NCBI RefSeq assembly: GCF_013214815.1 | Contig: NZ_JABSPU010000002.1 | Location: 1-64,000, forward strand | Origin: Gilvibacter sp. | GTDB taxonomy: Bacteria; Bacteroidota; Bacteroidia; Flavobacteriales; Flavobacteriaceae | Direction: 5' to 3' | Length of the DNA: 64,000 nt | Part shown: in pieces, positions 2,619-60,240 of the stretch | Layout: every line of letters starts with the position of its first letter | How positions within the stretch are numbered: position 1 is the first letter of the stretch | Made by a program: the position numbers and the translations under genes | The notes under the pieces: generated by a model | The model's database searches: none | Seen by the model: only the letters and a program-made list of their open reading frames with translations | What the model was told of the DNA's origin: nothing

Positions 2619-2647
2619 GATTGTCTTGATTGGTTAGTTCTCAGGAT

Positions 2648-2678
2648 CAAATGTAGATCGCTGAATTAGCCCAATCAA
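2648..2678 (-). promoter_or_regulatory. Promoter of the M6-like lipoprotein gene
   Basis: On the minus strand a TTG at 2678-2676 is followed after 20 bp by TACATTTG (2655-2648), matching the Bacteroidota consensus TTG-N19-21-TAnnTTTG. Transcription would start roughly 20 nt before the ATG at 2618. Confidence 0.55.
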
Positions 2679-2787
2679 GAGGTAAAAACCTGATTTTCAA
2701 TAGAAAATACCTTTGTGTTATGAAGAAAAACCTCCGAAGACTATTGAGGTTAAAACGTCATCTAGTTCCAAAAAAGACTAATTGGAA

Positions 2788-3501: not shown

Positions 3502-4046
3502 TGATCAACTCCCATTAAGGTTTTTAAGTTCTTCATACATCTCGATTTGTGGCTCTTTACAGTATTGACATCCTTGTAATGAGTCTGCTCAACAATTTCA
3601 CTTATGGTTAGATTCCTAAAGTAAAATAGCAACAGAACTTCTCTACAGCGCTCGGAGATCTGATTCAACTTTCTGGCCAAGAGTTTTTGCTGCGGACTCA
3701 GTCCGGGTTCTTCCGGACTTTCCAACTCTTGATCTTCAAAATCAGCTTCCCATCGCAGATGTCGATCACTCAACTTTAAGTAGCGAAAAACCTTGTTCTT
3801 TCCAATTCCGAAGAGGTAGGTCTTTAAGCTGCTTTGTTGAAGTTGCAACTGTTTGGTTACAAAATTCTGATGCATGGCTATAATGGTATCCTGATAGATA
3901 TCCATGGCTTGGGCATCGTCAATCTTATAACGCTTTACGTAATTCAGAAACTCTTCCCGGTATAATTTATAGACCTGTTCTAAAGCAGATTTGTCATCGG
4001 CTCGCAAACGGCTTTCCAAATTTTGGGGATCAGTGTTTCTTTCCAC
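3498..4046 (-). CDS. RNA polymerase sigma-70 family (ECF-like) sigma factor
   Basis: This is a 182-residue protein with the two-domain layout of ECF sigma factors: region 2 at about residues 20-90 and a region 4 helix-turn-helix at about 125-175, where LLLFYFRNLTISEIV sits in the expected place. It directs RNA polymerase to a subset of promoters in the cytoplasm. It is the first gene of a two-gene minus-strand unit with the TPR membrane protein. The divergent promoter region carries a TATATTTG -7 element flanked by a 10-bp inverted repeat. The divergent neighbours (two lipoproteins, a secreted protein and a CHAT protein) are plausible targets, but nothing in the sequence proves this. Confidence 0.85.
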   Translation of the reverse strand: MERNTDPQNLESRLRADDKSALEQVYKLYREEFLNYVKRYKIDDAQAMDIYQDTIIAMHQNFVTKQLQLQQSSLKTYLFGIGKNKVFRYLKLSDRHLRWEADFEDQELESPEEPGLSPQQKLLARKLNQISERCREVLLLFYFRNLTISEIVEQTHYKDVNTVKSHKSRCMKNLKTLMGVDQ

Positions 4047-4066
4047 TTAGTAGAAATGAAGTGTTG

Positions 4067-4117
4067 AAGGTTAACAGTCAATAGCAAATATAATTTTTTT
4101 TAGTCGGTGTTAACCTT
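4067..4117 (-). promoter_or_regulatory. Sigma-factor promoter bracketed by a GTTAAC inverted repeat
   Basis: AAGGTTAACA at 4067-4076 and TGTTAACCTT at 4108-4117 form a perfect 10-bp inverted repeat, 31 bp apart. Read on the minus strand, TATATTTG (4092-4085) matches the Bacteroidota -7 box and lies between the arms. One arm would therefore fall near the -33 region and the other near the start site. It looks like an operator pair or an autoregulatory element. Confidence 0.5.
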
Positions 4118-4217
4118 TTGATCTCAGGGATCACTAAAGCACGTATGCAAGTCCATTGAAATCCCCATCGATGCAGCAGTAAGTAAACCATCAACTTAAA
4201 CCAAACACCTCGAAAAT

Positions 4218-4859
4218 ATGATTATCAAAAATGCCCTATTCGCCCTTGCGAGTCTTGCTATTCTGAGCGCTTGCATGGGAGATCGAAAAACCATTGTTGG
4301 GGAAGACTTATCAGACACTTCTTTTGTCAATAAAGATTTTAAAGCCAATGCCATAAACTACACCGAGGGCATGAGTGCTTGTAGTGAATTATCTGCGGAT
4401 GAGATCGCCCAAATCTATCAAGTCTCGGTCAGTGCGGTTATCATTGATGACCCACTGACCAATCCGCAGCGAAGCGCCACCTCCACGCCTTTATGCTCTT
4501 TCTACATCAAATCCGGAGATAACGACTTTCAATGGTTGCGCGGTTCGATAGCTGTAGAACGCGAGATCGGGAAAGATGAATTTATGGGCGATGTGGCTGA
4601 GGCCACTGGTTCTGGTACAGATTGGGTAGAAGCTTGGAAGCTTAAGCAATCAATGTATGAATCCACTGAGTGGGTGCCCAACCTTGGAATGGCCGCTCTA
4701 TGGCACGGCCAGCAGAACACTTTGGAGATCAAATTTGAAGGCTACACCCTCAAGGTGCATCCGCTAGTCAACAAATCGAACCCACAGGAAATGGCGCTCA
4801 GTCGCGATTATAAAGCAGCTGCTATTGCAATGGCCAAAAGCGCAGGATACCTCAACTAA
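4218..4859 (+). CDS. Lipoprotein of unknown function (paralogue of the next gene)
   Basis: This 213-residue protein has a lipoprotein signal ending in LSAC (Cys19). The mature part has two further Cys (in ACSEL and LCSF) that could form a disulphide, and it ends in a helical AMAK segment. I do not recognise a family. The following gene encodes a protein with the same plan: lipobox, an early Cys, a second Cys before a beta segment, and a helical IAxxMA ending. I read the pair as an old tandem duplication. The genes lie in a plus-strand run with a secreted protein and a CHAT protein, divergent from a sigma/anti-sigma pair. Confidence 0.7.
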   Translation: MIIKNALFALASLAILSACMGDRKTIVGEDLSDTSFVNKDFKANAINYTEGMSACSELSADEIAQIYQVSVSAVIIDDPLTNPQRSATSTPLCSFYIKSGDNDFQWLRGSIAVEREIGKDEFMGDVAEATGSGTDWVEAWKLKQSMYESTEWVPNLGMAALWHGQQNTLEIKFEGYTLKVHPLVNKSNPQEMALSRDYKAAAIAMAKSAGYLN

Positions 4860-9843: not shown

Positions 9844-11779
9844 CGAGTTCGCGGGTGTCTATTTCAAAAGTAAAGGAAGTTCCTTTTTGGTTGGAAACAA
9901 AATCAACATTGGCGTTAAGATAATCAATCCGTGAATTAATATTAGAAAGGCCAATTCCATCACCAGATATCTCATCTCGGTCAAAACCAATACCGTCATC
10001 CTCAACGGTGACTTGAAGGCCGTTCTCTTGATAGCTGATCTGCACATCAATCTCGGTAGCCTGAGCATGTTTCACCCCATTGGCCACCAGCTCTTGGATG
10101 ATCCTCAATACATTCACCTCAGCCTTTTTGGGCAGTTGAAATTCACTTCCTAAAGATTGAAAGTTGATCTGTACTTGATGAGCGGCATTCATGCTTTCGC
10201 AATAGGCTTGCGCAGCTTCTTTTAGGCTAAAGTTCTCCAAAGCAGGCGGCACCAAATTGTGAGAGATCGCACGGACTTGCTTGCAGGAATCGTCAATCAT
10301 CGTGATAGCCTCTTTGATGACCTTGTTGTTCATTTCTATCAAGGTCGATAGCTTGTATTTAATGGCGGACAAATCTCCATTTACCCCATCATGTAGCTCT
10401 TTAGCGATTCTAAAACGCTCCTTCTCCTCTCCTTCAATAAGGGCTTCCAAGGATTTGATCTGATACTCCCGCTTTAAGGTGAGAAGTTCCTGATCCTTTC
10501 GTTTTTGTTTCTGACGGTAGATCAACCAAATCAACAAAGCGGCCACAGCTAAAAATCCAACGGCGCCAATCAAGTAATTTTGAAGCGTCCGCTTTTTTTG
10601 AATCTCCGTTTCCTGCTGATTCAAGGCAAGCTGTTGGGTAGCAATTTCTTTGTCTTTTTTGGTGGATTCATATTTGACTTGAAGCTCATTGATGTTGCGC
10701 ATCCGATCCTCTTCAAAAATACTGTCCTTGTACTGCGTGAAATCTTCAAAATGACTTAAGGCCAAACCAAACTGGCCTTGCTTTTTGTACAATTGGGAGA
10801 GGTTGGAATGAATTTCCATGGTCACCTTTTTGGAATCTGTCTGATAATTCAAAGCCTCTTGCAAGTTCTTTTTACTGGCGGAAAAATCCCCCAACAAATA
10901 ATAAGCCCTTCCTAAATTGGTCAATACTCTAGAAAGATCCGTAGTGAAATTATTCGCTTCAAAAATGCTCTTGGCTTGCTCGTAATAGACAATGGCTTCC
11001 TGATACTTGCCCTGTTCTTGAAGCACAAGACCAATATTCTCGCTGTTTATACCCAAACCCCAATTGTTATCGGTGGCTTTGTCAATTTCCCGAGCCTTGA
11101 GGTAGTATTCCATAGCCAACTCATAGCGCTTTTGATTGGAGTAGGTCAAAGCCAGGTTGCCATAAACGTTGGGCAGGTTTACCGAGTCTTTGTCCGCTTC
11201 GTGAATTTCGATGGCCCGCTCATAATTGGCAATGGCATCTTCATATTTACCCAAATCTGCATAAGTGATTCCTATGCTGTTTAAAGTAAGTCCCATGCCT
11301 TTTCGATGCTCCAAAGCCTCGTATACATCTAGAATCCTCAGATATACCTCCAAGCCTTCGTCATAATCTCCTTTTAGAGAATAGATCACGGCCTTTTGGA
11401 AAAGGTTGTTGGCTATGCTTAGCGAGTCCTGCTGTTGTTCTGCGTAATTTAAGGATTGCTCAATATGAATGAGGCCTTGCTGATAGTCTCCTTGAAGTCG
11501 ATGGAGCACAGCAATTCTATAGTTTGCTCGAGCGATCTGCTCCGCATCCTTTAACTCGGTAAATAGAGCCAAAGAGGTGTCCAGGTGTTTTTGGGCGAGC
11601 AGATTGTCACTCATCAGACTCAACCAGGCAAACTTACCGTGGGCGCTGGCTACAGCCGCCTTGTCTTGTGAAGTTCGAATGACCAAAAGCAAACTGTCTT
11701 TTGGACTCTGGTTTTGCCCCTGAGCGCTAACAAGCATAAGCAGCCAGAGGGCGAGAAAAAATTGCTTTTTCAAATTCAA
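9833..11779 (-). CDS. TPR-domain sensor histidine kinase (HisKA_3 type)
   Basis: This 648-residue membrane kinase has a signal peptide at residues 1-22, about seven TPR repeats at about 60-345, a coiled segment, one transmembrane helix at about 402-421, a HisKA_3 dimerisation helix with His463 (in KELHDG) and a HATPase domain with N-box ELVANGVKH and G-boxes DDGIGF and GIGLSN. The TPR region is predicted to be periplasmic and probably senses a protein or peptide. It is the NarL-type partner of the following response regulator (11-bp overlap). The fibre-protein gene ends 20 bp upstream on the same strand, suggesting co-transcription. The architecture is common in flavobacteria. Confidence 0.92.
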   Translation of the reverse strand: MNLKKQFFLALWLLMLVSAQGQNQSPKDSLLLVIRTSQDKAAVASAHGKFAWLSLMSDNLLAQKHLDTSLALFTELKDAEQIARANYRIAVLHRLQGDYQQGLIHIEQSLNYAEQQQDSLSIANNLFQKAVIYSLKGDYDEGLEVYLRILDVYEALEHRKGMGLTLNSIGITYADLGKYEDAIANYERAIEIHEADKDSVNLPNVYGNLALTYSNQKRYELAMEYYLKAREIDKATDNNWGLGINSENIGLVLQEQGKYQEAIVYYEQAKSIFEANNFTTDLSRVLTNLGRAYYLLGDFSASKKNLQEALNYQTDSKKVTMEIHSNLSQLYKKQGQFGLALSHFEDFTQYKDSIFEEDRMRNINELQVKYESTKKDKEIATQQLALNQQETEIQKKRTLQNYLIGAVGFLAVAALLIWLIYRQKQKRKDQELLTLKREYQIKSLEALIEGEEKERFRIAKELHDGVNGDLSAIKYKLSTLIEMNNKVIKEAITMIDDSCKQVRAISHNLVPPALENFSLKEAAQAYCESMNAAHQVQINFQSLGSEFQLPKKAEVNVLRIIQELVANGVKHAQATEIDVQISYQENGLQVTVEDDGIGFDRDEISGDGIGLSNINSRIDYLNANVDFVSNQKGTSFTFEIDTRELDEY

Positions 11780-14555: not shown

Positions 14556-15266
14556 TTACTTTTTCTGCGGATGGACTCCAGGCATCCACCCCATATTGAA
14601 TAAAACTTTAAGACTTAAAAAAGTCAAAACAGTCGGCACTAAACCTCTGAATATCGAATAGAAACTGGCCAAGGGATCCAAAAGTTCCTGCTTTGATACT
14701 TCTGAAAAGAGCAGTTCTCCGTACGGCTGCGCCTCATAGAAACAGGCCATTAAGAGGTTGTAACCCATATGAAAGCCAAGTCCTAAATACATGGAACGGG
14801 TCTTAGAGAACGCATAGGCCCATACATAACCGGTAAAGCCCGTGATAACAATAACGTAGGCAATGAGTATCGACCGATCCTCCAATATCCCATAGGAGAA
14901 CACGTGATAGACCCCAAAACAGAGTGCAGATATCCACAAAGCCCCTTGCGAGCCCAATCGCCTTAAAAGAACATAAAGCAAAGCGCCTCTAAAGACCAGA
15001 TCTTCAGTAAGTGCGGAGCGCCAATGATAATAGAATGCCTCTGCAAAGGTCTTTAGATCAAACTCCGTGCGCTGCCACTGGACGGATTGCACAGCAGTTT
15101 CTATCCCAATAAGAACCAGACAACTCATCACTAAAATTGTCAAACCAAGACCAAACTGGATCAAGCGGTCTTTGTTTGGTATTAACCCAAGCGCGCTTAA
15201 GTTCTCCTTCTCAATAAGGTATAGGAGCCCCCAAGAGATCAATAGTAAGACTAATAATCCAAGCAT
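14556..15266 (-). CDS. CPBP family intramembrane protease-like protein
   Basis: This 236-residue multi-pass membrane protein has about six to seven helices. The CPBP (Abi/CAAX-protease-like) motif appears as TEDLVFRG (Glu88, Asp89, Arg93), with the later FxxxH (FGVYH, His121) and GFHMGYN motifs in place. The second Glu of the usual EE pair is Asp here, so activity may be altered or absent. Members act as intramembrane metallo-type glutamate proteases or as immunity and maturation factors. It lies 23 bp after the XRE/DUF4870 gene on the same strand and is probably in its operon. Confidence 0.8.
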   Translation of the reverse strand: MLGLLVLLLISWGLLYLIEKENLSALGLIPNKDRLIQFGLGLTILVMSCLVLIGIETAVQSVQWQRTEFDLKTFAEAFYYHWRSALTEDLVFRGALLYVLLRRLGSQGALWISALCFGVYHVFSYGILEDRSILIAYVIVITGFTGYVWAYAFSKTRSMYLGLGFHMGYNLLMACFYEAQPYGELLFSEVSKQELLDPLASFYSIFRGLVPTVLTFLSLKVLFNMGWMPGVHPQKK

Positions 15267-15289
15267 AATAATTGACTATCTGATGTGTG

Positions 15290-15859
15290 TTATTGGTTCT
15301 TTTTTTTGAGGAAGGGAATGGACAGCGGATAATAATAGGTTCCAGATTCCATAGCGGAGAGCGTGGAACGAATAGAGAAGACTAAAGCAATAAGTGCAAT
15401 GAACCCAGTAATGAAAAAATTAAGCCCAGGCAGTGCAAAAAATAGTAAAAGTGATATCAAGATCAACAGACTCATGCTCGCGTGAAAATTGATCACTGCA
15501 CGGCCGTGGGTATCGTAAATGGGGTTCTGATCGGCCTTATTGATCCAAATAAATAAAGGAAACAAAATGTTAGCCAGCGGAATGATCAACCCAAAGAATG
15601 GAGAAGCGTGAAGCAAGAGCATCCATTTGCGATTGATGGGTTCTTCTTTGGGATTGTCCAAAACCAATAGATCATCAACCTCAACCTCTAATCCAACCGC
15701 GAGAAGTTTTACGGTCTGTAAATGCGGTTGCACTTCACCCTTTTCAATACGTTGAATGGTACGCACACCCACGGTGGTTCTATCCGCCAACTCATCTTGG
15801 GTGTAGCCTTTGAGTTTTCGGTGGTACAGGAGGTTTTCTTGTAGACTTGCTCGTTTCAT
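15290..15859 (-). CDS. XRE-family regulator fused to DUF4870-like membrane domain
   Basis: This 189-residue protein has an N-terminal XRE helix-turn-helix at about 6-60 (YTQDELADRTTVG then RTIQRIEKG) and a hydrophobic C-terminal part (about 80-175) with about four helices and the inward HGRAVINFH-type motif of DUF4870/Tic20-like proteins. It would be a membrane-tethered DNA-binding protein. The following gene encodes a CPBP intramembrane protease, so the regulator could be released or modified by its neighbour, but that is speculation. A TACATTTG -7 box lies 20 bp upstream of its ATG. Confidence 0.8.
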   Translation of the reverse strand: MKRASLQENLLYHRKLKGYTQDELADRTTVGVRTIQRIEKGEVQPHLQTVKLLAVGLEVEVDDLLVLDNPKEEPINRKWMLLLHASPFFGLIIPLANILFPLFIWINKADQNPIYDTHGRAVINFHASMSLLILISLLLFFALPGLNFFITGFIALIALVFSIRSTLSAMESGTYYYPLSIPFLKKKNQ

Positions 15860-49282: not shown

Positions 49283-50479
49283 TTAGTTGCCTATACGTTC
49301 GAGGGCTTTTTCCATCCACGGATCGCCATCAGCATTCAAATCGTTCCAATTCAAAGAGACTTCCGGTAAAAAGTCTTCCCGAGGGGTTCCGTTCACATGA
49401 AATAATTGCTCAAAGGTAATGTTTAATCCGTAGCCTGAATTGGGCAAATTCACAGAATAATTTGCACCTAGCAATCGCGCCATTTGGGTGCCAACAACAG
49501 TAGCATTGCCAAAGGCATCCAATCCAATGGTCACGCCTTCTCCCATGCTTCCCGTCCAAAAGTTCACCAAAACATAAACGGGTTTATCGTAAGTGATTCC
49601 GCGCGGTTCAACAATTTCTGTCCAGCGCTTGTCTTCTGCTACCCGGTAATGGGTCTGGTACGGCTTAGGTGCTGCAGTGAATCGACCTAAAATGGGCATC
49701 CCCACATTAGAATCACCCCCAGATGGGGTGTTCCTTAGATCTATTATCAAGGCTTTGGTGTCCATCAACGTATTCAAGGCATCATCAAATACAGTGATCA
49801 AGTCTGTATTCCCCAAGGAGTTCTCTATGCGGATATATCCAATGTTCCCATCCAACATTTTGCTGGTGAGTAAAGCATTCTCATTTTGTGGATACGGACA
49901 AATCCCGAGGTCTAATTCCAACTGTTTTTCTTCACGGATGACCGTAACGGTTCGAGGCAATCTATAATCACCGGCAAGCGCAATATTAAATCCGTTTTCT
50001 AAGGAAATCTGCGATCCTCCATTGAATTTTCCGCTGTAACGAGCTACAGCATCCTCAATAGGAACTCCATTGATCGATACTACGACATCCCCAGGTTTTA
50101 TTATTGACTTTGCAGGAGCCGCTTCACGAACTTCCAAAATAGTATAGCGGCCATCAATGAGACCTCCTTTCATATCTGTTCCGCTAGGCAACAGACGTTG
50201 AGATCGATCGGTATTGGTCAACAAATGGGTGTGTGAGTCCGCCAATTCGCGCAACACGGCTTCCAAATAAAGCGTAAAGTAGTACGGATGCGTAACCGTA
50301 TCGGTTAACGGACGGTAGTGCTCTTTTACAGCCTTCCAATTGGTGCCTTGTCTTTCAAAATAGGCGTAATTCTTTTCGACCTCATCCCAAAGGAAGTCAA
50401 AATCGGCCTTAAAATCTTGCTGCGCTTGGAGACCAAGCGCAGCAGTTAAAAAGAGGTATAAAGTCAGAAGCTTATTCAT
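49283..50479 (-). CDS. S41 family peptidase (C-terminal-processing-protease-like)
   Basis: This is a 398-residue exported protein with a signal peptide (about 1-19). A PDZ-like domain is visible at about 90-170 (IKPGDVVVSINGVP), then the S41 peptidase core (about 190-380) with the catalytic-type segment RNTPSGGDSNVG and NFWTGSMGEGV. These enzymes degrade or trim periplasmic proteins. It starts 8 bp inside the end of the preceding BNR-protein gene, so the two are coupled. Confidence 0.85.
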   Translation of the reverse strand: MNKLLTLYLFLTAALGLQAQQDFKADFDFLWDEVEKNYAYFERQGTNWKAVKEHYRPLTDTVTHPYYFTLYLEAVLRELADSHTHLLTNTDRSQRLLPSGTDMKGGLIDGRYTILEVREAAPAKSIIKPGDVVVSINGVPIEDAVARYSGKFNGGSQISLENGFNIALAGDYRLPRTVTVIREEKQLELDLGICPYPQNENALLTSKMLDGNIGYIRIENSLGNTDLITVFDDALNTLMDTKALIIDLRNTPSGGDSNVGMPILGRFTAAPKPYQTHYRVAEDKRWTEIVEPRGITYDKPVYVLVNFWTGSMGEGVTIGLDAFGNATVVGTQMARLLGANYSVNLPNSGYGLNITFEQLFHVNGTPREDFLPEVSLNWNDLNADGDPWMEKALERIGN

Positions 50480-53400
50480 CAGCTACAAACAGATAATTCA
50501 AGTTTAAACTATTAAATGCCGCATTGAAATTGGCAATTTCTTGGGTGATGAGCACATCAAACTTATCCAACTGCTCATTGATCAATGCAGTAAGTTCGTT
50601 TTTCACCATCACATCTTGCTCGGTTGGCGGGAAGTCATCCATCCCTACCAAAGAGTTCAAGTGCGCCAATTTATTGGTCAATTTAATCGGGAAGTTGAGA
50701 GGATCTTGCCCAGAACGGTTCTTGGTTTGATACAAGGCCTTTTCGATCTCCCCAAACTGCTCGCTGAGATTCTTGGCTTGCTCAATGAGTTCTGCCACAC
50801 GCTCATCTCCCTTGTATTGCTTTTGGAAAGCCTCCAATTGCTTATTGACATTTCTGATCTTTTTGATCGCTTTATGCGCTTTATCTACCGTTTCATTGAC
50901 ATCGTTAATGAAGTTGAACTGCTCACGCATTCCAGCAATATCAGTCTCCGCATTTTCATCAGCTAAGATATTGAAGGTCTTTTCTTGACTTTCTCCATCC
51001 ACGCTTAAGGCTACTTTATAGGTGCCCGGAACCGCCTTAGGCGCATTGGTACTTGCCCACCAAAGGATCATTCCTTTTAGGCGCTCCGCACCTTCTCCAC
51101 GCATATTCCAAGTAAAGAGGTTACTGCCTTCAGAAACTTTTAATTTGTTTTTAGGATCCTTGGTTCCGTAGCTCATAATGGTATCTCCAGCCTGAGTCAT
51201 ATAACTCAAACGAATGTCTTTATCCTTAGGGTCGTTCACATAGAAATACGTCATAACGCCTCCCGGATGATTGGCTCCAGAGGTCAGCGAACCCGAACGT
51301 CCACCACCGCCCATGCGATACGTATCTTTTGGCTGGAACAACATCGCATCTGTTTTGGCACTGCTGGCTGCTTGACGCAATAAGGTCAAGTCATCAATGA
51401 TCCAGAGGCTACGTCCCTGTGTGGCAACGATTAAGTTGTCATCCTTTAAAGCTAAGTCAGTGATCGGTACGATAGGTAAATTCAACTGGAACTCTTGCCA
51501 GTTGGCTCCGTCATTGAAGGAAACATACATTCCCGTCTCTGTACCCGCATAAAGCAAGCCTTTTTGTTTTGGATCCTCACGCAAAACGCGCGTAAAGTGT
51601 TCTGCAGCGATTCCTGTTGTGATCTTTTTCCAAGTCTTTCCGTAGTCGCTGGTCTTGTATAGATAAGGTGCAAAGTCACCTGTTTTGTATTTGGTCCCCG
51701 CCACATAACATACTGCAGGGTCAAAACGAGAAGGTTCTATGCTGTTGATCATCATCCATTCTGGCATGCCTTTAGGAGTCACGTTCTCCCAAGAAGCTCC
51801 GCCATTACGGGTTAAATGAACCAATCCATCATCAGATCCAACCCACATAAGGCCTTCTGTCACTGGCGATTCTGCCGCAGCGAAAATGGTACAATAGTAC
51901 TCAACAGAAGTGTTGTCTTGCGTAATTGGTCCACCGGAAGATTTTAGTTTCTCCGGATCATTTCTGGTCAGATCGGGAGAAATGATATCCCAGCTCTGTC
52001 CTTCATTGGTAGTCACGTGTACGTGATTGGAGAATGTGTACATCTTCTTCGGATTGTGAGGTGAGAAGATGATCGGGAAATTCCACTGGAAACGATATTT
52101 CATGTCTTCTGCACCATGTCCCATAGGATTGTCCGGCCATACGCTGATACTGCGTACTGTTCCTGTTCTGTGATTGTAACGCGTCAGGAATCCGTCATAA
52201 CTACCACCATAAACGATATCATTGTCTAATGGGTCAATGGCAATATGAGCACTTTCTCCACCGGCAGTAGATTCCCAGTCGTTCTCTCCAATGCTGAATC
52301 CTTCATTTCTGTGATTGATTCTTATGGTAGAATTATCCTGCTGTGCTGCATAAATACGATACGGGAATGCGTTATCTGTAGTCACTCTGTAGAACTGAGA
52401 CGTAGGCTGGTTGTGGTAGGTACTCCAAGTGGCTCCACCGTCATAGGTTACCTGCGCTCCTCCGTCATCTCCAATGATCATACGTTTTGGATCCTCTGGG
52501 GCAATCCACAGATCGTGGTGATCCCCATGAGGTGCGTTATAAGTGCTGAAGGATTTCCCTCCGTCTGTACTTTTATGGTAGCGTACGTTGAGTACATAAA
52601 CCAGATCTTCATCCTGAGAATCTGCATAGATGCGCGTGTAATACCAGGCGCGTTGTCTTAGTTTACGCTCGCTGTTGATGTGGCTCCAAGTGGCTCCACC
52701 GTCTTCTGAACGGTAAACTCCACCTTTGTCTTTGTTTTCTACTATGGCCCAAACACGATCAGCGTTGACAGGAGAAACTGTGACACCAATAATTCCTAAA
52801 GTGTCCGTTGGGAAACCAGGGTTCTTTGAGATCTCTGTCCAAGTCTCTCCGCGATCGGTACTCTTCCACAAAGCGGAACCGTCTCCTCCACTACTTAAAC
52901 TGTAAGGCGTTCTGCGTACATTCCAAGTAGAAGCGTAAAGCACTCTTGGGTTGCTCGGGTCTATAGTCAAATCTACCGCTCCTGCATCGCGGTTGGCAAA
53001 AAGTACCTTGCGCCAGGTTTTCCCTCCGTCTATACTTTTATAGACTCCGCGCTCATCGGTTGGTTTATAAATATTCCCCATCACCGCGGCATACACTACG
53101 TTATGATCGTTCGGGTCAATGGCAATTCGCGGAATGTGTCGGCTTTTTTCCAAGCCCATTTGCGTCCAGGTCTTTCCGGCATCAACGCTTTTCCAAACTC
53201 CGTAACCAGAAGATACATTACCGCGCACGGTCTTTTCTCCACCACCCACATAGATCACATTGGGATCGCTTTCTGCCACTTCAATGGCTCCGATAGAACC
53301 ACCGAAATAACCGTCTGAGATATTCTTCCAGGTACGTCCTCCGTCATTGGTTTGCCAAATTCCGCCTCCAGTGGCTCCGAAGTAAAATAAATTGGGCTTC

Positions 53401-53573
53401 CCCGGGACACCGGTAACAGCCGCGCTACGTCCGCCTCTAAATGGACCAACCAAACGATACTCCATGGCATCGTACAGGGCTTCATCTACCGCCTGGGCTT
53501 GAGTTTCAAAAGGAATGGCTACAAAAAGGAGTGTGAGTGCAAGGACAGTTGCACGAATCTTTGCGTAAAACAT
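50472..53573 (-). CDS. Exported BNR/sortilin (VPS10)-like propeller protein
   Basis: This is a 1033-residue protein with a signal peptide (1-27). The first 700 residues form a ten-bladed-type propeller with many Asp-box/BNR motifs such as DGGRTWKN, DAGKTWTQ and DGGATWST, as in VPS10/sortilin-like glycosyl hydrolase families of Bacteroidota. A small beta domain and a C-terminal coiled helical region (about 905-1000) follow. The catalytic residues of a sialidase are not evident, so enzymatic activity is uncertain; a binding or peptidase-associated role with the coupled S41 protease is plausible. A TATCTTTA box at 53596-53603 may be its promoter. Confidence 0.82.
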   Translation of the reverse strand: MFYAKIRATVLALTLLFVAIPFETQAQAVDEALYDAMEYRLVGPFRGGRSAAVTGVPGKPNLFYFGATGGGIWQTNDGGRTWKNISDGYFGGSIGAIEVAESDPNVIYVGGGEKTVRGNVSSGYGVWKSVDAGKTWTQMGLEKSRHIPRIAIDPNDHNVVYAAVMGNIYKPTDERGVYKSIDGGKTWRKVLFANRDAGAVDLTIDPSNPRVLYASTWNVRRTPYSLSSGGDGSALWKSTDRGETWTEISKNPGFPTDTLGIIGVTVSPVNADRVWAIVENKDKGGVYRSEDGGATWSHINSERKLRQRAWYYTRIYADSQDEDLVYVLNVRYHKSTDGGKSFSTYNAPHGDHHDLWIAPEDPKRMIIGDDGGAQVTYDGGATWSTYHNQPTSQFYRVTTDNAFPYRIYAAQQDNSTIRINHRNEGFSIGENDWESTAGGESAHIAIDPLDNDIVYGGSYDGFLTRYNHRTGTVRSISVWPDNPMGHGAEDMKYRFQWNFPIIFSPHNPKKMYTFSNHVHVTTNEGQSWDIISPDLTRNDPEKLKSSGGPITQDNTSVEYYCTIFAAAESPVTEGLMWVGSDDGLVHLTRNGGASWENVTPKGMPEWMMINSIEPSRFDPAVCYVAGTKYKTGDFAPYLYKTSDYGKTWKKITTGIAAEHFTRVLREDPKQKGLLYAGTETGMYVSFNDGANWQEFQLNLPIVPITDLALKDDNLIVATQGRSLWIIDDLTLLRQAASSAKTDAMLFQPKDTYRMGGGGRSGSLTSGANHPGGVMTYFYVNDPKDKDIRLSYMTQAGDTIMSYGTKDPKNKLKVSEGSNLFTWNMRGEGAERLKGMILWWASTNAPKAVPGTYKVALSVDGESQEKTFNILADENAETDIAGMREQFNFINDVNETVDKAHKAIKKIRNVNKQLEAFQKQYKGDERVAELIEQAKNLSEQFGEIEKALYQTKNRSGQDPLNFPIKLTNKLAHLNSLVGMDDFPPTEQDVMVKNELTALINEQLDKFDVLITQEIANFNAAFNSLNLNYLFVADE

Positions 53574-53891
53574 CAGGATGGTTTTTTGGTTTACGTAAAG
53601 ATAACCAAGAATTCGCTAAGAAGCTGTTAAAAAAGGGGATACAGCGGTGATTTTGAGTCGTTCGCACATTTATGAATATCACCCTAAATACATAAAAGTA
53701 GATTTCTTATGCTTGGAAATGAGTTTATTAGCATCCTACTTTTATCCTCCTGGCAAAAAAGCCACCATCACTAACTTTTAAAACCTCACAAGAATGACAT
53801 GACATTTGAAAAATGAATCAACCAGATACTAGGTGTCTTGATTCCAGCTATCCGGCCATAGGCCAATCATTAACTAAACAATCTCAATATT
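53574..53891. other. 318-bp divergent intergenic region
   Basis: Holds the -7 box of the minus gene (TATCTTTA, 53603-53596, with the TTGGTTATCTTT core), an IR of ATAAAAGTAG (53692-53701) with CTACTTTTAT (53736-53745), and a possible plus promoter TTG (53713-53715)-N21-TACTTTTA (53737-53744) for the Cys-rich gene. No ORF, tRNA or terminator is seen. Confidence 0.5.
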
Positions 53892-54422
53892 ATGAAAATC
53901 AATGTACGCTTGTTCATAATGTTACTCCTCTGCACCTTTATTTTCAACAACAACACCATGGCCCAATCTACCGCTTATATGAGTGAAAATCTGGCCATCA
54001 CGAGTATAGATCTTGTGGATCAGAAAGACGGAAGCTTTGTGTTTCAAATCAAGCTCACAGATTTTAGTGGTCGGAAACAACTTCCCGAAGGCTTCGGGTT
54101 TAGTGGCGTTACCTTTACTGATGATGGCAAAGGAAACGATCCAAAAGCCGGAGATGGTATCTATCATTCCAAAGAGTTGGGTGATTATAAAAAACTACGA
54201 AATCGCGATTTTCTCGATGTGGTTATCGTTGGCAATCAGTTCAAACACCATCAAAAACTCAGCAAGGTAAGCTCTAAGGGAATTGGCTGTAAGTTCGTTC
54301 CTTGCGGTTGTCCTTGTGATAATGGGACCACCTGTAATGCATGTAATTGGTTTGGCTGGAGCTGTTGGAAAATAGAATCCTGCGAGATCAGTATAAGCCT
54401 GAGTGATCTGATTATGCTCTAA
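53892..54422 (+). CDS. Exported protein with Cys-rich C-terminal segment
   Basis: This 176-residue protein has a signal peptide (about 1-24, ending TMAQ). The middle is beta-rich with a DDGKGNDPKAGDGIYHS loop resembling calcium-loop motifs. The last 44 residues hold eight Cys (133, 138, 140, 142, 148, 151, 158, 164) with several CxC and CxxC spacings and aromatic residues between, looking like a small disulphide or metal-binding knot. It starts a plus-strand run with a CPBP protease and two unknown exported proteins. I recognise no family. A cleaved C-terminal peptide is an inference from the adjoining protease. Confidence 0.7.
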   Translation: MKINVRLFIMLLLCTFIFNNNTMAQSTAYMSENLAITSIDLVDQKDGSFVFQIKLTDFSGRKQLPEGFGFSGVTFTDDGKGNDPKAGDGIYHSKELGDYKKLRNRDFLDVVIVGNQFKHHQKLSKVSSKGIGCKFVPCGCPCDNGTTCNACNWFGWSCWKIESCEISISLSDLIML

Positions 54423-54425
54423 AAA

Positions 54426-55250
54426 ATGAAAGGCCTCTTTAAAATAGATAAACGCATCCCGTTGCTTTTACTGATCGTTCTAGTGGTGGGTGTGATCATA
54501 AGACAGTTTCAAGATGTCGAAATGCCTGAATTGCTCAAAGTGCTAATTACCAACGGGATTCTAATCACCACTGTAGTTATTCTTTTTTGGTCAAACACAG
54601 TTGTATTTAGTTTAAAACTACGCACTGGGATACAAGTAGGAATCTGGTTTTGGATTAGTTTGATTGCTTGCCTTGTATTTTGCTGGGCTACCTCATCAGG
54701 AGTGAATTTGGACAATTATGATTCGATTTTCTTGACCCAGCTTTTGGGTATTGTATTTGTTCAGACCTTTGCGGAAGAACTTATTTTTAGAGGCCTTTTA
54801 ATTAACGGGTACCTTATTCGAGGGGTTAAGATTCGGCAGGCTGTCTTTTATTCTGCCGCGCTATTTGGCAGTATGCATTTGATTAACCTAAGCTCCAATA
54901 CCGATACCGTCTCAGTTCTTAATCAAACCGTAATGGCAACTTTTATGGGCGTCTTTTTAGGAGCCATTTACATCCATGTCCGAAATATCTATTGGATGGG
55001 TTTACTGCATATGTTGATCAATTTACCGTCATACCTAAAGAAGTATCCCAATACTTTTTGGATGGAATCTGAAGCTCTGGCCACGAATGAAATGAATCTC
55101 ATCTCTACACTAATCTCCTCTTTTTTAATCCTAATTATGTTCAGTCCTTTTTTGATATCAGGTTTACTCATGCTCAGAGAAAAAACATTGTCAAAACTGG
55201 ATTTAGACACCACCAAAAAGGCTAAAGAAAAAGCTTTTAGCCGCATTTAA
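54426..55250 (+). CDS. CPBP family intramembrane glutamate protease
   Basis: This 274-residue protein has about eight transmembrane helices and the intact CPBP motifs: EE-x3-R (Glu117, Glu118, Arg122 in FAEELIFRG), FxxxH (FGSMH, His151) and HxxxN (His195, Asn199 in HMLIN). Members cut prenylated or signal-like peptides, or confer immunity to bacteriocin-type peptides. It starts 3 bp after the Cys-rich protein gene, close enough to be translationally coupled, so it could mature or detoxify that product. Confidence 0.88.
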   Translation: MKGLFKIDKRIPLLLLIVLVVGVIIRQFQDVEMPELLKVLITNGILITTVVILFWSNTVVFSLKLRTGIQVGIWFWISLIACLVFCWATSSGVNLDNYDSIFLTQLLGIVFVQTFAEELIFRGLLINGYLIRGVKIRQAVFYSAALFGSMHLINLSSNTDTVSVLNQTVMATFMGVFLGAIYIHVRNIYWMGLLHMLINLPSYLKKYPNTFWMESEALATNEMNLISTLISSFLILIMFSPFLISGLLMLREKTLSKLDLDTTKKAKEKAFSRI

Positions 55251-55271
55251 CTTCCCCTGCCAATATACATT

Positions 55272-55688
55272 ATGAAACGCTATTTTTTTATGGCAATGGC
55301 CTCTTTGGCCTTGTCCCAACCCATCCATGCCCAAACAGCTCAAGTACAGTTTGGACGCTATGGAGAGTGCCACAGCGGTCGCGGCATCTGCGCGATCAGC
55401 AGTGAAGCCGCAAGACAAGAACACAACGCAACCTTGATCAAAGAAGACGGTGTTATCGTTTTAAGGATACACACCGAATTTTTGGATTCAAAAGCCAAAA
55501 GTCAGCTCACTGAGACAATCATCACCTCGCCCGCAGGCTTTATAAGAATTGACACCGCTTTTAGCTTCAATGAAGGAGTTAAAAATTTATTAGATGGTTT
55601 AGGTTCTCAACTTAGTGGACTTAGTGCGCGGAACTATCCAATAACCTTGGAACAGGGTCAAGTCAATATATACCTCACCAAAATTTAA
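55272..55688 (+). CDS. Small exported protein of unknown function
   Basis: This is a 138-residue protein with a signal peptide (about 1-20, ending IHAQ). The mature start carries ECHSGRGICAI with two Cys that may form a disulphide loop. The rest alternates short strands and helices, with no recognised family. It lies 21 bp after the CPBP gene and 4 bp before the next gene, so all four genes are probably one operon. A role with the Cys-rich protein is only inferred from position. Confidence 0.65.
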   Translation: MKRYFFMAMASLALSQPIHAQTAQVQFGRYGECHSGRGICAISSEAARQEHNATLIKEDGVIVLRIHTEFLDSKAKSQLTETIITSPAGFIRIDTAFSFNEGVKNLLDGLGSQLSGLSARNYPITLEQGQVNIYLTKI

Positions 55689-55692
55689 GGGT

Positions 55693-56850
55693 ATGAAAGC
55701 ACTACTTGTATTTACACTTATCCATTCTGCATGCATTCAACCTTTGAGAGCATTCCATGATGAATTTCCACCTGAGAGTACCTTTGATCAGATTCTGCTG
55801 GAATTAGAAAGCGAGATCACCGAAATCCGAATTTCCTATCAACAGGAATACAGAACCTTGGGTCTTGCCATTGAAGAAGTACGTCAGAATATGTTAATGG
55901 CGCAAACGACAGCAGATCTGGTCAGGCTTATTTACAGGAAAGACCATCTGCTCGAGCTATTAGACATTACCAAGCAAACAGAATATGCCGATATCAGTAA
56001 AGTAAGATACCTCAAAGGACTTCAATTGATACGGTTGCTCTTTGAGAAAATGTTGTCCTTGGATCATCATTTTGAAGCAGTGACCACGTTTTCAGAAATG
56101 AGCGCTATGGCTAATCCAAATAGCTTTGAAGCTTTCAATGAAGTCAAAGGAATTCTACAACAGCAGCAAAAAAAATCGAATTTTGACCTTCCGGATCTAC
56201 TGGGTGAAAACATATATACTTCTGTTGTACATTCAATGGTTTCCCTATTCAACAGCGGACAGTCCCGCAAGGAAAAGGAAGCGGCTATTAAGGATATTGA
56301 ATGCATCTTGGATTTTTCTTTAAACATGCATCAGGACCTCAACACGATCTACTTTGAAACCGCTTTTTTAAAGTCTAGCAGCGATGACCTTTTAGATGGA
56401 TTGGAGGAACTCTTTAGAGCATATACTTTGCCCATAGGATATCAAAATAGCTTAGAAAAATGCCGAGCTATGGACGATTGGGATGCGCTTAAAGAAGCCT
56501 TGAATCAATACTTAAATAAGATGCAATCGGCAATTTTGGATCCTTCTAAAAGCGATCAGGCTTTTAAGCTCCAAGTCAATTTGGAATTCAGTATAGACCG
56601 TTTGCTTCAGTTCATTGCACAGTACAACAACTTCATTGATCAAGGGGCAAAATTCTACCAGAAATTCGCAATTATGTTATCCAGTTACGAGAACGAAGCA
56701 CTTTGCAGAGGGCAGATACCAGGAGAATTTGAAGTACTTAGGCAAAAGATCACCAATTCCATAGATAAATTTAACAATGCCTATAAACCTGCGGAGATCA
56801 ATGGAAGTAAATTGAAGGAAGTCCTCTACGGAATCAATGAGTTCGACTAA
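55693..56850 (+). CDS. Exported or membrane-associated helical protein of unknown function
   Basis: This is a 385-residue protein with a hydrophobic leader (about 1-19, MKALLVFTLIHSACIQ), possibly a lipoprotein (Cys14) or signal peptide. The rest is mostly long charged helices with LE and EE repeats and no catalytic motif, suggesting a scaffold or binding protein. It is the last gene of the four-gene run and overlaps the convergent MATE gene by 4 bp. I recognise no family. Confidence 0.6.
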   Translation: MKALLVFTLIHSACIQPLRAFHDEFPPESTFDQILLELESEITEIRISYQQEYRTLGLAIEEVRQNMLMAQTTADLVRLIYRKDHLLELLDITKQTEYADISKVRYLKGLQLIRLLFEKMLSLDHHFEAVTTFSEMSAMANPNSFEAFNEVKGILQQQQKKSNFDLPDLLGENIYTSVVHSMVSLFNSGQSRKEKEAAIKDIECILDFSLNMHQDLNTIYFETAFLKSSSDDLLDGLEELFRAYTLPIGYQNSLEKCRAMDDWDALKEALNQYLNKMQSAILDPSKSDQAFKLQVNLEFSIDRLLQFIAQYNNFIDQGAKFYQKFAIMLSSYENEALCRGQIPGEFEVLRQKITNSIDKFNNAYKPAEINGSKLKEVLYGINEFD

Positions 56851-58226
56851 GTCGTGGCCCGCATCCGTTTAACCGCAGCATTTAAGAAATAACCGGTCAC
56901 TACAGTAGCCAGCACATCTGCTATGGGGAAGGATATCCAGACGCCAAATACGCCCAAATAAGTCGGTAATATCAAGATCAAAGGGATTAGGAAAAAACCT
57001 TGTTTGGTAAGACTCAATAACAATGCGGGAACCGCTTTGCCAATGGCTTGAAAGTAACTCGCCCCAATGAGTTGCACCACTATGATGGGAGTCGCGGCAA
57101 ATACCCAGCGTAAGGCGTTTGGAGTCCTTTTTAGAATCTCCGTATTGTTGGCCAGTGTCTGCGCGTCAATATTGTCACTGCTGCCAATAAAAACCGTAAC
57201 TATTTCTGTTGGAAATGCCATGATCAGGGCAAAGATCAGTACAGCCAATCCTCCGGAATATTTAATAGAGGTGTTGATGGATTCTCGCACGCGTTCAAAC
57301 TGTTTGGCGCCGTAATTGTACCCTGCAATAGGCAGGAAGCCTTGGTTTACACCAATCACTGGGAAAAGTGCAAACATGAGCATACGCGAAATGATTCCGT
57401 AAACAGCCACGTCCAAATCATCCCCATAATGAATAAGTACATTGTTCAATAGAATGGTGAGCACTGCAATTACTCCTTGGCGGGATAAGGTCACAAAACT
57501 CAAGGCATTGATCTCGCGAACAATGTTCCGCTGCAAAGAGAAGGAGCTCCATTTCAAACGGAGTTCACTCTTAACAGCAAAGAACCAAAAGATGAACGCA
57601 AAACAGATGGCATAACTGATGAAGGTCGCCCAAGCTGCACCTTCCATGCCCATATCAAAAACACGGATCAAGATCCAGTCCATGAAAATGTTCCCAATAG
57701 CTGGCAACATCATAGCGTACATGGCAAATTTAGGTTTGCCTTCTGCACGGATCACGTTGTTGCCCATCATGCACATGGCCAACATCACAATTCCGTAAAG
57801 CACTATATTGTAATAGGTCAGAGCGAGATCTTTAAATGACTCACCTGCCCCAAAGAATTCGATCAAATAATCTTGAAAGACCAGGCCCAAAATGGCCAGA
57901 ATCCCAGAAGTAAAAAAGGTCAGTGTTATTTGATTTCCAAAAACCTTTAAAGCTTTGTCATTGTCTCCTGCACCGAGGGCTCTTGATAATACGGAACCTC
58001 CTCCAATACCAACGGCCAAACCAATTGCGGCAATAAAGAAAGTAACAGGAATTACAACGGTGATGGCAGATATGGCCAAAGGGCCAATCCATCGGCCTAC
58101 AAAAATGGTATCAACGATCATGTTCAAGGACATGACCAAAATTCCAATAGACGCCGGAACAGCCTGCTGGATCAGCAATTTGCTAATAGGGGCGGTGCCC
58201 AGTGCTTTGGAATTCCTTTTTGCCAT
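56847..58226 (-). CDS. MATE family efflux transporter
   Basis: This 459-residue inner-membrane protein has about twelve transmembrane helices in two homologous halves, with the GGGSVLSRALGAGD segment of MATE exporters in the first half and MNILPxxG-like loop patterns in the second. It exports drugs or metabolites by Na+ or H+ antiport. It directly abuts hemH on the same strand (no gap) and overlaps the helical-protein gene at its other end. The substrate is unknown. The length is normal. Confidence 0.9.
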   Translation of the reverse strand: MAKRNSKALGTAPISKLLIQQAVPASIGILVMSLNMIVDTIFVGRWIGPLAISAITVVIPVTFFIAAIGLAVGIGGGSVLSRALGAGDNDKALKVFGNQITLTFFTSGILAILGLVFQDYLIEFFGAGESFKDLALTYYNIVLYGIVMLAMCMMGNNVIRAEGKPKFAMYAMMLPAIGNIFMDWILIRVFDMGMEGAAWATFISYAICFAFIFWFFAVKSELRLKWSSFSLQRNIVREINALSFVTLSRQGVIAVLTILLNNVLIHYGDDLDVAVYGIISRMLMFALFPVIGVNQGFLPIAGYNYGAKQFERVRESINTSIKYSGGLAVLIFALIMAFPTEIVTVFIGSSDNIDAQTLANNTEILKRTPNALRWVFAATPIIVVQLIGASYFQAIGKAVPALLLSLTKQGFFLIPLILILPTYLGVFGVWISFPIADVLATVVTGYFLNAAVKRMRATT

Positions 58227-59270
58227 TTAGGCTATTGCTGTTTTTAAATCGGCAATGCGCCAGTGTTCGATCCAATCAGCAAGCAATGAGGCCCAATCGT
58301 CATCCTCATTCAAACAAGGGATCACAGTAAAGTCTTCTCCGCCTACTTCGTGAAAAATTTCTTCCCCTTCCATGGCAATTTCTTCTAGCGTCTCCAAACA
58401 GTCACTCACAAATGCTGGAGTAACAATGGCCAATCGCTTAGTCCCGGCTAAGCCCATTTTTTCAATAGTACGGTCTGTATAAGGTTGCAACCAGGGATCA
58501 AAACCTAATCTAGATTGGAAGGTAGTAGTGTAGGTTCCTTCCTCAAATTGTAAATATTTAGCGACCAATCGGGTTGTTTCTTTACACTGATGTCGATAGC
58601 AATAAGCATGCGCCTCACTAGGAGTTTGACAACAACTGCCATCTATTTTGCAGTGCGATTTGGTCGGATCACTCTTGCGAATGTGACGTTCCGGAACCCC
58701 GTGATAACTGAACAGCAAATGCTCGTAATTACTTCCTTCTAAACCGCGTTTAATAGACTCCGATAATACCTTGATATAACGCGGGTCATTATAAAAGGGA
58801 TCCAAAGTGCTGATGTGCAACTGCGGGAAGAACTCTTGGCGTAATTCTTCCACCTTTACCGTGATGGTTTCTGTTGTTGCCATGGCAAACTGCGGATACA
58901 AGGGCATAACCAGAATCTCTTCAACGCCTTTATCCACTAATTCTTGCATCCCATTTTTAATGGTCATGCTACCATATCGCATGGCTAAAGCCACTGGAAT
59001 CTCTAGTTTTTCTTGCACTTTGGCCTGTAAACGTTCTGAGAGCACTATGAGCGGAGAGCCTTCCTCCCACCAGATCTTGGAATAGGCCTCGGCTGACTTT
59101 TTGGGACGGGTATTCAAAATGATTCCTCTGACCAATAGAATTCGCGCCCAACGCGGCACGTCAATCACTCTTGGATCCATCAAAAACTCATCCAAATAAC
59201 GCTTTACGTCTTTAGGGTCTGTACTGTCTGGCGACCCCAAATTGACCATTAAAACACCTTTCTTATGCAT
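58227..59270 (-). CDS. hemH: Ferrochelatase with an internal Cys cluster
   Basis: This 347-residue enzyme inserts Fe2+ into protoporphyrin IX, the last step of haem synthesis. The catalytic His190 lies in FSYHGVPERHI, and GVLMVNLGSP opens the family signature. It also carries Cys207, 213, 214, 224 and 229 between the catalytic His and the C-terminal half, in the region where some bacterial ferrochelatases bind a [2Fe-2S] cluster with four Cys. Whether this one does is not shown. The gene is followed directly by the MATE gene and lies 1.2 kb from the hemA operon, divergent across an AraC gene. Confidence 0.95.
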   Translation of the reverse strand: MHKKGVLMVNLGSPDSTDPKDVKRYLDEFLMDPRVIDVPRWARILLVRGIILNTRPKKSAEAYSKIWWEEGSPLIVLSERLQAKVQEKLEIPVALAMRYGSMTIKNGMQELVDKGVEEILVMPLYPQFAMATTETITVKVEELRQEFFPQLHISTLDPFYNDPRYIKVLSESIKRGLEGSNYEHLLFSYHGVPERHIRKSDPTKSHCKIDGSCCQTPSEAHAYCYRHQCKETTRLVAKYLQFEEGTYTTTFQSRLGFDPWLQPYTDRTIEKMGLAGTKRLAIVTPAFVSDCLETLEEIAMEGEEIFHEVGGEDFTVIPCLNEDDDWASLLADWIEHWRIADLKTAIA

Positions 59271-59355
59271 GATACTTTTTTTGCGAAGTTAAGCCGCTTA
59301 AAGGCTATAATTCTTGCGCTGTTTTATTATTTGACAATTGATTAATCAATATCGT

Positions 59356-60240
59356 TTATACTGTTTGACCCATGGTAAACTTCTTGGGTGTGGTTCCGTA
59401 GCGCTTTTTAAAGGCGGCAATAAAATGACTTGCCGTGCTATAGCCCAGTTTTAGGCCAACTTCGTTCACATTGAGTGTTCCTGAAGCTAAAAGTTGACGC
59501 GCCACTTCCATTTTATACTCCAACAAAAAGCTAAACACAGAATCCCCATAAATCTGTTTAAAACCTTCTTTAAGTCTGTTGATTGGCATTTGCACTTCAT
59601 CTGCTAATTCCTGCAAACTCGGTGGCTCAGCCATCCGCTTGATGATAATCTCTTTAGCTTGTTTGATCTTTTTCACATTGGCCTCACTGGCTAAAAAGGG
59701 ACACTGTGCAATGTCCAACTCTTCGGGTTTGTTGAAATACAAACTCAATAATTCATAAGCTTTGGCTTTGAAATAAAGCGGCTTTACGTTTGGGTGTAAG
59801 TTGAATTGTAAGAGTTGATTCAATGCCACTGCCATGGAAGGCGTGATCATGGTTTCCTGATAGTACTTTTGCTTACTATTCTCTTCCGATAGGAAAGTGA
59901 TATAATTCGCTTCGGTTGAAAAAAAACTGTGAAGTTTAGAAATGGGCACTATTATGGATAACAACCACGAATCAGGCGCTAAGGTGAGTGCTATGGGCAA
60001 TTCTTTCTTCGGATTGTAGAGCAGAATGGCCTTACCCTCTCCCGCCGGAAAGGTGTAAGTATTGTTGTTGAATTGAAAAAATCCACTGCCTTTTACACAA
60101 AAATGAAACTGCAGGCAATCTTGACGTACTTCCCTGCTGTAGAAGGTGTTAGTATCTTCTTCATTCAAAAACTCCAACACAAAAAAGCCAGGATCGATAC
60201 TGGTTTGTTCGTAAATGCCGTTAGCGACACTTTTTTCCAT
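59356..60240 (-). CDS. AraC family transcriptional regulator
   Basis: This 294-residue protein has a cupin-like N-terminal sensing domain (about 20-150) and a C-terminal AraC double helix-turn-helix (about 200-290) with LQELADEVQMPINRL and VGLKLGYSTASHFIAAFKKRYG. It is divergent from hemA across a 197-bp gap, so it may regulate the haem operon, hemH or itself. No effector can be deduced. A GTTTG-like -7 element is not convincing in its upstream region. Confidence 0.9.
   Translation of the reverse strand: MEKSVANGIYEQTSIDPGFFVLEFLNEEDTNTFYSREVRQDCLQFHFCVKGSGFFQFNNNTYTFPAGEGKAILLYNPKKELPIALTLAPDSWLLSIIVPISKLHSFFSTEANYITFLSEENSKQKYYQETMITPSMAVALNQLLQFNLHPNVKPLYFKAKAYELLSLYFNKPEELDIAQCPFLASEANVKKIKQAKEIIIKRMAEPPSLQELADEVQMPINRLKEGFKQIYGDSVFSFLLEYKMEVARQLLASGTLNVNEVGLKLGYSTASHFIAAFKKRYGTTPKKFTMGQTV

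What the first reader, a model, noticed from the sequence alone, without database searches (positions are those of the whole stretch)
53892..56850. Four-gene unit: Cys-rich exported protein, intact CPBP protease and two unknown exported proteins
The first protein ends in 44 residues with eight Cys, the second is a CPBP protease with all motifs intact and starts 3 bp later, and two exported proteins of no recognised family follow closely. This resembles a peptide-maturation or immunity locus: precursor with a Cys knot, membrane protease and accessory proteins. No biosynthetic or export genes are present, so it is not a known bacteriocin type.
Basis: partly seen in the sequence, partly recalled or inferred. 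Interest (0 to 1): 0.6.

Follow-up and report, generated by a model that had tools for sequence, protein, structure and literature searches.

The report
Cys-tailed surface protein with dedicated protease
Marine bacteria of the Bacteroidota carry a rare, fast-changing gene pair in which an exported protein ending in a disulfide-type mini-domain is followed at once by its own membrane protease; it looks like a new, untested precursor-and-protease (or toxin-and-immunity) module.

Summary
In detail: A (53892-54422) ends in 44 residues with eight Cys, B (54426-55250) is a CPBP protease with intact motifs, C and D are exported and match no family. In relatives the unit splits. A+B is a pair: a B-type protease directly follows A in 10 of 12 A-bearing genomes (7 of 9 genera); one A stands alone (G1269), one is cut by a contig end. 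C+D is a separate module (alone in G015; D without C elsewhere). A's body matches the choice-of-anchor X domain (12 of 12 aligned proteins). Its tail comes in five classes with 4-10 Cys, always an even number, without a transmembrane helix; in one class tails are far better conserved (65-75%) than bodies (27-41%). Within Gilvibacter, A and B have been replaced between flanks that are 89-96% identical, with the start of the signal peptide kept; A and B trees conflict, so one B type seems to serve different tails. Most likely B processes A; B as immunity to a tail toxin is the main rival. The closest analogue is the MrtJ/JDVT-CTERM pair, but its membrane tag and score cut-off are not met. Function is untested.

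The parts
53892..54422 (+). A: exported protein, 176 aa; signal peptide, choice-of-anchor X-like body, Cys-rich C-terminal tail
   Evidence: ORF; NF041940 25.4 bits against cut-off 25, matched by 12 of 12 aligned family proteins at E up to 0.1; AlphaFold2 model pLDDT 73.9
53892..53939 (+). start of A's signal peptide, conserved in DNA between Gilvibacter species although the rest of A is replaced
   Evidence: blastn alignment of window and G001 ends at 53939; 15 of the first 16 residues identical
54288..54419 (+). Cys-rich tail of A, residues 133-176, eight Cys with spacing 4,1,1,5,2,6,5
   Evidence: the same spacing in G002 and G1269
54426..55250 (+). B: CPBP/Rce1-like intramembrane glutamic protease, 274 aa, motifs intact
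   Evidence: PF02517 E 8.2e-16; invariant E117 E118 R122 F147 H151 H195 N199 in 8 of 8
55272..55688 (+). C: exported protein, 138 aa; part of a separate C+D module
   Evidence: found in 4 of 89 relatives, beside D in all four; in G015 with D but without A
55693..56850 (+). D: exported, predicted all-helical protein, 385 aa, conserved C-terminal end
   Evidence: 5 of 99 relatives plus G339; model pLDDT 64.8; no Foldseek match with E up to 0.001

Best explanation
A+B is a two-gene precursor-protease module. A is exported by Sec (by its lipobox a lipoprotein in about half of the family) and carries, on a fast-changing body, a C-terminal mini-domain closed by 2-5 disulfides in the oxidising envelope. 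B, a CPBP protease of the inner membrane with intact motifs, acts on A during export: it trims or releases A so that the tail-bearing product reaches the surface or the medium. The tail is the working part (a ligand, toxin or adhesive tip). Shown: the pairing, intact motifs, even Cys counts, tail conservation in one class, cassette replacement in Gilvibacter. Inferred: that B cuts A, where it cuts, disulfide bonding, the location, and what the tail does. C+D is a separate exported module that shares the operon in Gilvibacter, or an accessory to it.
For: B directly follows A in 10 of 12 A genomes, 7 of 9 genera. B is a recognisable subfamily: from a model built without it, each of 10 B proteins gets 88.8-199.5 bits, while 8 other CPBP-like proteins get at most 63.4 (which corrects the control set). 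Motifs intact in 8 of 8. The curated model matched by most B proteins is MrtJ, a substrate-processing CPBP (6 of 8, weak; MrtS 4 of 8, Mrt_core 1 of 8). Tail Cys count even in 12 of 12 tails, 7 of 7 spacings. In tail class II (G001, G011, G339, G299) tails are 65-75% identical, bodies 27-41%. One B sits behind two tandem A genes with 10- and 8-Cys tails (G592), and one B lineage goes with different tail classes, as expected of an enzyme that reads a shared feature.
Against: G1269 has an intact A with no B-type protease in its genome (best match to the B model 27.9 bits). The tail has no transmembrane segment, so how an intramembrane protease would reach a cut site is unclear. The lipoprotein members are already anchored at the N terminus. 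The curated match with the best E-value is not a processing enzyme but ABC_perm_CPBP (5 of 8, best E 4.9e-10, against 7.9e-7 for MrtJ). The lowest B score (88.8) is not far above the best control (63.4). No cleavage has been observed.
Confidence: 0.45

Rival explanations
1. Toxin and immunity: the Cys tail of A is a bacteriocin-like toxin shown on or shed from the surface, and B protects the producer, as CPBP (Abi) proteins do for some class II bacteriocins.
For: Gene order toxin then immunity with a 3-bp gap. Sporadic distribution and replacement of A+B at a fixed place: between G000 and G001 A is 29% and B 26% identical while neighbours are 89-96%; A and B each reject a clade of the three Gilvibacter copies (p-AU 0.0004 and 0.0007). 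Discrete tail classes. CPBP immunity proteins SkkI, PlnI and PlnL are described (PMC8538875, passages).
Against: A and B reassort: one B lineage goes with two tail classes, unlike a specific immunity protein. An orphan A exists without B (G1269). One B serves two different A genes in G592. No positive selection in the one close pair examined: dN/dS of A 0.06 and B 0.16 between G000 and G002. A has a Sec-type or lipoprotein signal, not a double-glycine leader (by inspection).
Confidence: 0.27
2. C-terminal sorting: a relative of the MrtJ/JDVT-CTERM two-gene system in which B cuts behind an (acylated) invariant Cys of the tail.
For: Two-gene enzyme-target neighbourhood, as described for MrtJ (PMC11980579, passages); choice-of-anchor X body in 12 of 12; three Cys invariant in all tails aligned; weak MrtJ matches in 6 of 8.
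Against: No C-terminal hydrophobic helix (largest 19-residue mean in the last 55 residues 0.06-0.95 in 11 of 12, 1.53 in one Cys-rich tail) and at most one K/R in the last ten residues. Even Cys counts leave none free. MrtJ score 28.2 against a cut-off of 75. Six of 12 have a lipobox-like N terminus already.
Confidence: 0.12
3. A is a plain secreted or surface protein with a structural disulfide domain; B is a neighbour with an independent role (envelope quality control or signalling).
For: Orphan A in G1269; purifying selection; choice-of-anchor X body.
Against: Adjacency in 10 of 12 genomes over 7 genera, with B a subfamily of its own, is hard to put down to chance (no probability was computed).
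Confidence: 0.16

Closest known systems
MrtJ / JDVT-CTERM two-gene system and myxosortase MrtX (PMC11980579, passages seen)
   Same: CPBP protease beside a single exported target, sporadic distribution, invariant Cys near the target's C terminus
   Different: No transmembrane helix or basic end in the tail; 4-10 Cys in even number instead of one short motif; B far below MrtJ's cut-off; half of the targets look like N-terminal lipoproteins
CPBP (Abi) immunity proteins of class II bacteriocins (SkkI, PlnI, PlnL; PMC8538875, passages seen)
   Same: Exported Cys-bearing gene product followed by a CPBP gene; variable locus
   Different: A is a Sec-exported or lipoprotein-type protein of 176-231 aa, not a short double-glycine peptide; no ABC exporter seen beside it; A and B reassort
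CPBP proteases that mature peptides (SilX, PMC9298176; MroQ/AgrD and SagE as cited in its introduction)
   Same: Intact CPBP protease acting on a peptide precursor
   Different: Those precursors are short (recalled); none is described there with an exported body and a disulfide-type tail

Membership tests
CPBP / Rce1-like intramembrane protease (PF02517) | Profile match and motifs EExxxR, FxxxH, HxxxN | tested here: met
   E 8.2e-16, 58.5 bits against cut-off 22.4; motifs invariant in 8 of 8
MrtJ / JDVT-CTERM system | Protease reaches the MrtJ equivalog cut-off (75 bits) | tested here: not met
   28.2 bits for the window's B; scores of the other members against the cut-off not shown
MrtJ / JDVT-CTERM system | Target ends in Cys motif, transmembrane helix and basic cluster | tested here: not met
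   At most one K/R in the last ten residues in 12 of 12; 19-residue hydropathy mean of the last 55 residues at most 0.95 in 11 of 12 and 1.53 in one Cys-rich tail
MrtJ / JDVT-CTERM system | Two-gene neighbourhood of protease and a single target | tested here: met
   10 of 12 genomes, with two tandem targets in G592
choice-of-anchor X domain (NF041940) | Score above the curated cut-off | tested here: met
   25.4 against 25 for window A, partial match; 12 of 12 aligned proteins match at E up to 0.1, their scores against the cut-off not shown
Class II bacteriocin with CPBP immunity | Short precursor with double-glycine leader and dedicated ABC exporter | tested here: not met
   By inspection: A proteins are 176-231 aa with a Sec or lipoprotein signal; no ABC exporter among the ORFs of 50000-60000, a MATE-type transporter lies downstream on the other strand
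Class II bacteriocin with CPBP immunity | Antibacterial activity and protection by the CPBP protein | not testable with these tools
   needs a bench test
Bacteroidota surface lipoprotein (export signal K-(D/E)2) | Lipobox Cys followed by the export signal | tested here: inconclusive
   Lipobox-like Cys in 6 of 12 A proteins (G299, G056, G090, G592 twice, G761); K-(D/E)2 close behind it in 3 of those 6 (G299, G592 twice), by inspection; signal as in the abstract of PMC5080379; window A has no lipobox

The most novel reading that the evidence does not exclude
A new family of Bacteroidota disulfide-rich C-terminal peptides, displayed on an interchangeable surface carrier, exchanged between species as toxin- or ligand-like cassettes at a fixed chromosomal place, and matured or neutralised by a dedicated CPBP protease that needs no membrane-spanning tag in its substrate.
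Probability: 0.35. Interest if true: 0.72.

Novelty: new variant of a known kind. Interest (0 to 1): 0.48.

Why it matters
Prokaryotic CPBP proteases are largely unexplored; the myxosortase authors call theirs the first report of one in protein sorting in prokaryotes (PMC11980579, abstract). A recurrent two-gene pair names the likely substrate outright and makes the question testable in E. coli. If the tails are bioactive, this is a rare, variable source of disulfide-rich peptides in marine Flavobacteriia.

Tried and rejected
Chance or artefact: rejected, since the next-densest Cys stretch in the window has 5 against 8 and the pairing recurs over 7 genera. One conserved four-gene unit: rejected. 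Plasmid or virus gene: no match of A in 72,556 plasmid records at E up to 0.01; in viral contigs 4 stretches matched a pattern, none a relative. Known defence system: no PADLOC match for A-D up to E 0.1. Positive selection on A: not seen in one pair of genomes. Solved structures by sequence: none for A up to E 1, none for B up to E 0.01, one for D at E 0.58, taken as chance. Folds: no Foldseek match with E up to 0.001 for A or D (best 0.017); VIA-align gave at most Z 2.2 for A; the tail was not modelled alone and D's model is weak (pLDDT 64.8). Single-member NCBIfam matches of A proteins, such as BSAP5b pore-forming toxin (1 of 12, E 0.0055) and TIGR03503 (8 of 12, best E 0.0009), were not followed up. 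In 99 class genomes two CPBPs besides the window's matched the B model at E up to 1e-12 (G461 59.9 bits, G093 51.5 bits); neither has an A-like neighbour in the 12 kb fetched. A tail-only profile in 149 family genomes matched 4 genomes, all A proteins, no tail on another body. Promoter pattern: 130 sites against 128 expected, uninformative. Rows left out of the A family, because they cover only part of the profile and not the tail: G274, G728 twice, 14 genomes of family f11 (one with two matches) and G000:C130, G1067, G1076, G1107, G1152, G1170. Of these I opened G728 and G000:C130 only; the two G956 matches and G1107 cover signal peptide and body and could be distant relatives. Control set was faulty (one entry, L071, was the wrong ORF, L072 and L094 are the same protein, and L073, L074 and L090 were not picked up); one search repeats it with 8 controls, and the margin is smaller than first computed. 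Trees used 4 of those controls. Paper searches; only (Flavobacteri, CPBP family, cysteine-rich: 0 papers) aimed at this pairing. The in silico myxosortase paper, recalled by its DOI, is not held, so absence from print is not shown.

Full report
What is there. The window lies in a Gilvibacter-like flavobacterium: the one named record found is Gilvibacter sediminis NBRC 101626, whose A is 94% identical. Four genes run on the + strand: A 53892-54422, B 54426-55250, C 55272-55688, D 55693-56850, with gaps of 3, 21 and 4 bp. A ends in 44 residues with eight Cys. B is a CPBP protease (PF02517, E 8.2e-16) with EExxxR, FxxxH and HxxxN intact. C has no family match; D has only a sub-threshold Pfam match.

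A is not wholly unknown. Its body reaches the NCBIfam cut-off for the choice-of-anchor X domain (25.4 against 25, partial), and all 12 aligned family proteins match that model at E up to 0.1. No Pfam or NCBIfam model convincingly covers the tail. The AlphaFold2 model (pLDDT 73.9) gives a beta-rich body and two long strands (130-138 and 158-166) framing the Cys loop; residues 168-176 are of low confidence. No convincing fold match.

Family and pairing. Searches of 149 relatives, 397 genomes of the family, 395 of the class, 296 of the order and 296 of the phylum (overlapping sets) gave A in 12 genomes of nine genera: G000-G003, G011, G056, G090, G299, G339, G592, G761, G1269. A is therefore rare. 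A B-type CPBP follows A directly on the same strand in 10 of the 12 (all but G299 and G1269). In G299 the contig ends behind A, and a B-like C-terminal piece lies at the end of another contig. In G1269, on a 3.15-Mb contig, A stands alone among response-regulator-like genes, and the genome has no B-type CPBP (best 27.9 bits). G592 has two A genes in tandem before one B. In G003 A is broken and the contig ends inside B. The 12 proteins aligned below come from 11 genomes: G003 is left out and G592 gives two.

B is a subfamily. In leave-one-out scoring each of 10 B proteins got 88.8-199.5 bits from a model of the others; 8 other CPBP-like proteins from the same and other genomes got at most 63.4 (correcting). 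In the tree the nine B proteins are one side of a branch against four controls with support 85/93, not strong. In 99 class genomes two CPBPs besides the window's matched the B model at E up to 1e-12 (59.9 and 51.5 bits); neither has an A-like neighbour.

The tail. Counted from the first invariant Cys, the 12 tails are 35-44 residues long with 8, 8, 8, 6, 6, 6, 6, 6, 8, 10, 8 and 4 Cys: always even, in seven distinct spacings. If parity were random per spacing the chance would be about 1 in 128 (my arithmetic; the spacings are not fully independent). This fits disulfides and leaves no tail Cys over for acylation. Two members (G011, G339) have one more Cys in the body. I sort the tails by eye into five classes. 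In the class of G001, G011, G339 and G299 (four genera) tails are 65-75% identical and bodies 27-41%; between classes tails are 16-33% identical (10 of the 12 proteins compared pairwise). In the duplicate of G592 the reverse holds: body 91%, tail 68%. A tail-only profile found no tail on other proteins in 149 genomes. There is no C-terminal transmembrane helix.

Cassette replacement. Between the window and G001 (same genus) the upstream 1033-aa protein is 96% identical, MATE 93%, ferrochelatase 89%, AraC 95%, but D 77%, C 49%, B 26% and A 29%. DNA similarity stops 48 bases into A, so the start of the signal peptide is kept, and resumes at 55656 near the end of C. A and B each reject a clade of the three Gilvibacter copies tested (p-AU 0.0004 and 0.0007). 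The A tree puts the window with G1269, G090, G592 and G056 (99/98), away from G011 and G339 (holding window, G002, G011 and G339 together: p-AU 0.0003). The B tree puts the window with G011 and G339 (87/91), and G001 with G761 (98/97); holding G001, G011, G339 and G761 together in B gives p-AU 0.024. The groups were named after the trees were seen, rows are few and some branches long, so I take the conflict as likely, not proven. Between G000 and G002 A is under purifying selection (dN/dS 0.06; B 0.16, C 0.12, D 0.02 with saturated dS, neighbours 0.01-0.03).

C and D. D was found in 5 of 99 relatives (G000, G001, G002, G011, G015) and in 1 of 6 further A genomes (G339). G003 and G090 and G056, G299, G592, G761 and G1269 have none. 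C was found in 4 of 89 (G000, G001, G002, G015). In G015, which has no A, C and D lie together with no CPBP in the 13 kb fetched. In G011 and G339 D follows B directly without C. So C+D, or D alone, is a second module that often sits behind A+B: five of six D genomes have A+B, and five of 12 A genomes have D.

Mechanism. Intact motifs, a subfamily of its own and adjacency suggest that B's work concerns A. The literature gives two precedents for a CPBP beside an exported Cys protein: processing (myxosortase and the MrtJ pair, PMC11980579, passages; SilX, MroQ and SagE in PMC9298176, abstract and introduction) and immunity (SkkI, PlnI, PlnL in PMC8538875, passages). Processing is favoured because one B lineage goes with different tail classes, one B sits behind two A genes, and an A without B exists; immunity is favoured by cassette replacement and gene order. 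I give 0.45 to processing and 0.27 to immunity. Filing it as a MrtJ/JDVT-CTERM system fails on two tested features (score cut-off, membrane tag), though it may work in a like manner.

Verdict. A real, rare and fast-changing two-gene module whose substrate-enzyme relation can be tested directly; function unproven. Interest 0.48.

Noticed in passing
window, about 14556-15293, - strand: A second CPBP-like protein (236 aa ORF, no EExxxR by pattern; a TAG stop lies within the longer match); the corresponding G002 protein also shows no EExxxR, so it looks like a degenerate CPBP.
   Followed up: partly
L029 (G592) 1649-4425, - strand: Beyond the A-A-B genes lie two similar lipoproteins with a Cys-rich stretch, a thioredoxin-like protein and a further Cys-rich exported protein; possibly a disulfide-handling neighbourhood.
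   Followed up: no
L086 (G015) 10855-11331, - strand: Another exported protein with a Cys-rich C-terminal part about 4 kb from the C+D pair, unlike the A tails.
   Followed up: no
L089 (G000:C130) 2699-4339, + strand: Two tandem related lipoproteins of 243 and 246 aa with a glycine-rich hydrophobic C-terminal part; the second matched only the signal-peptide end of the A profile.
   Followed up: partly
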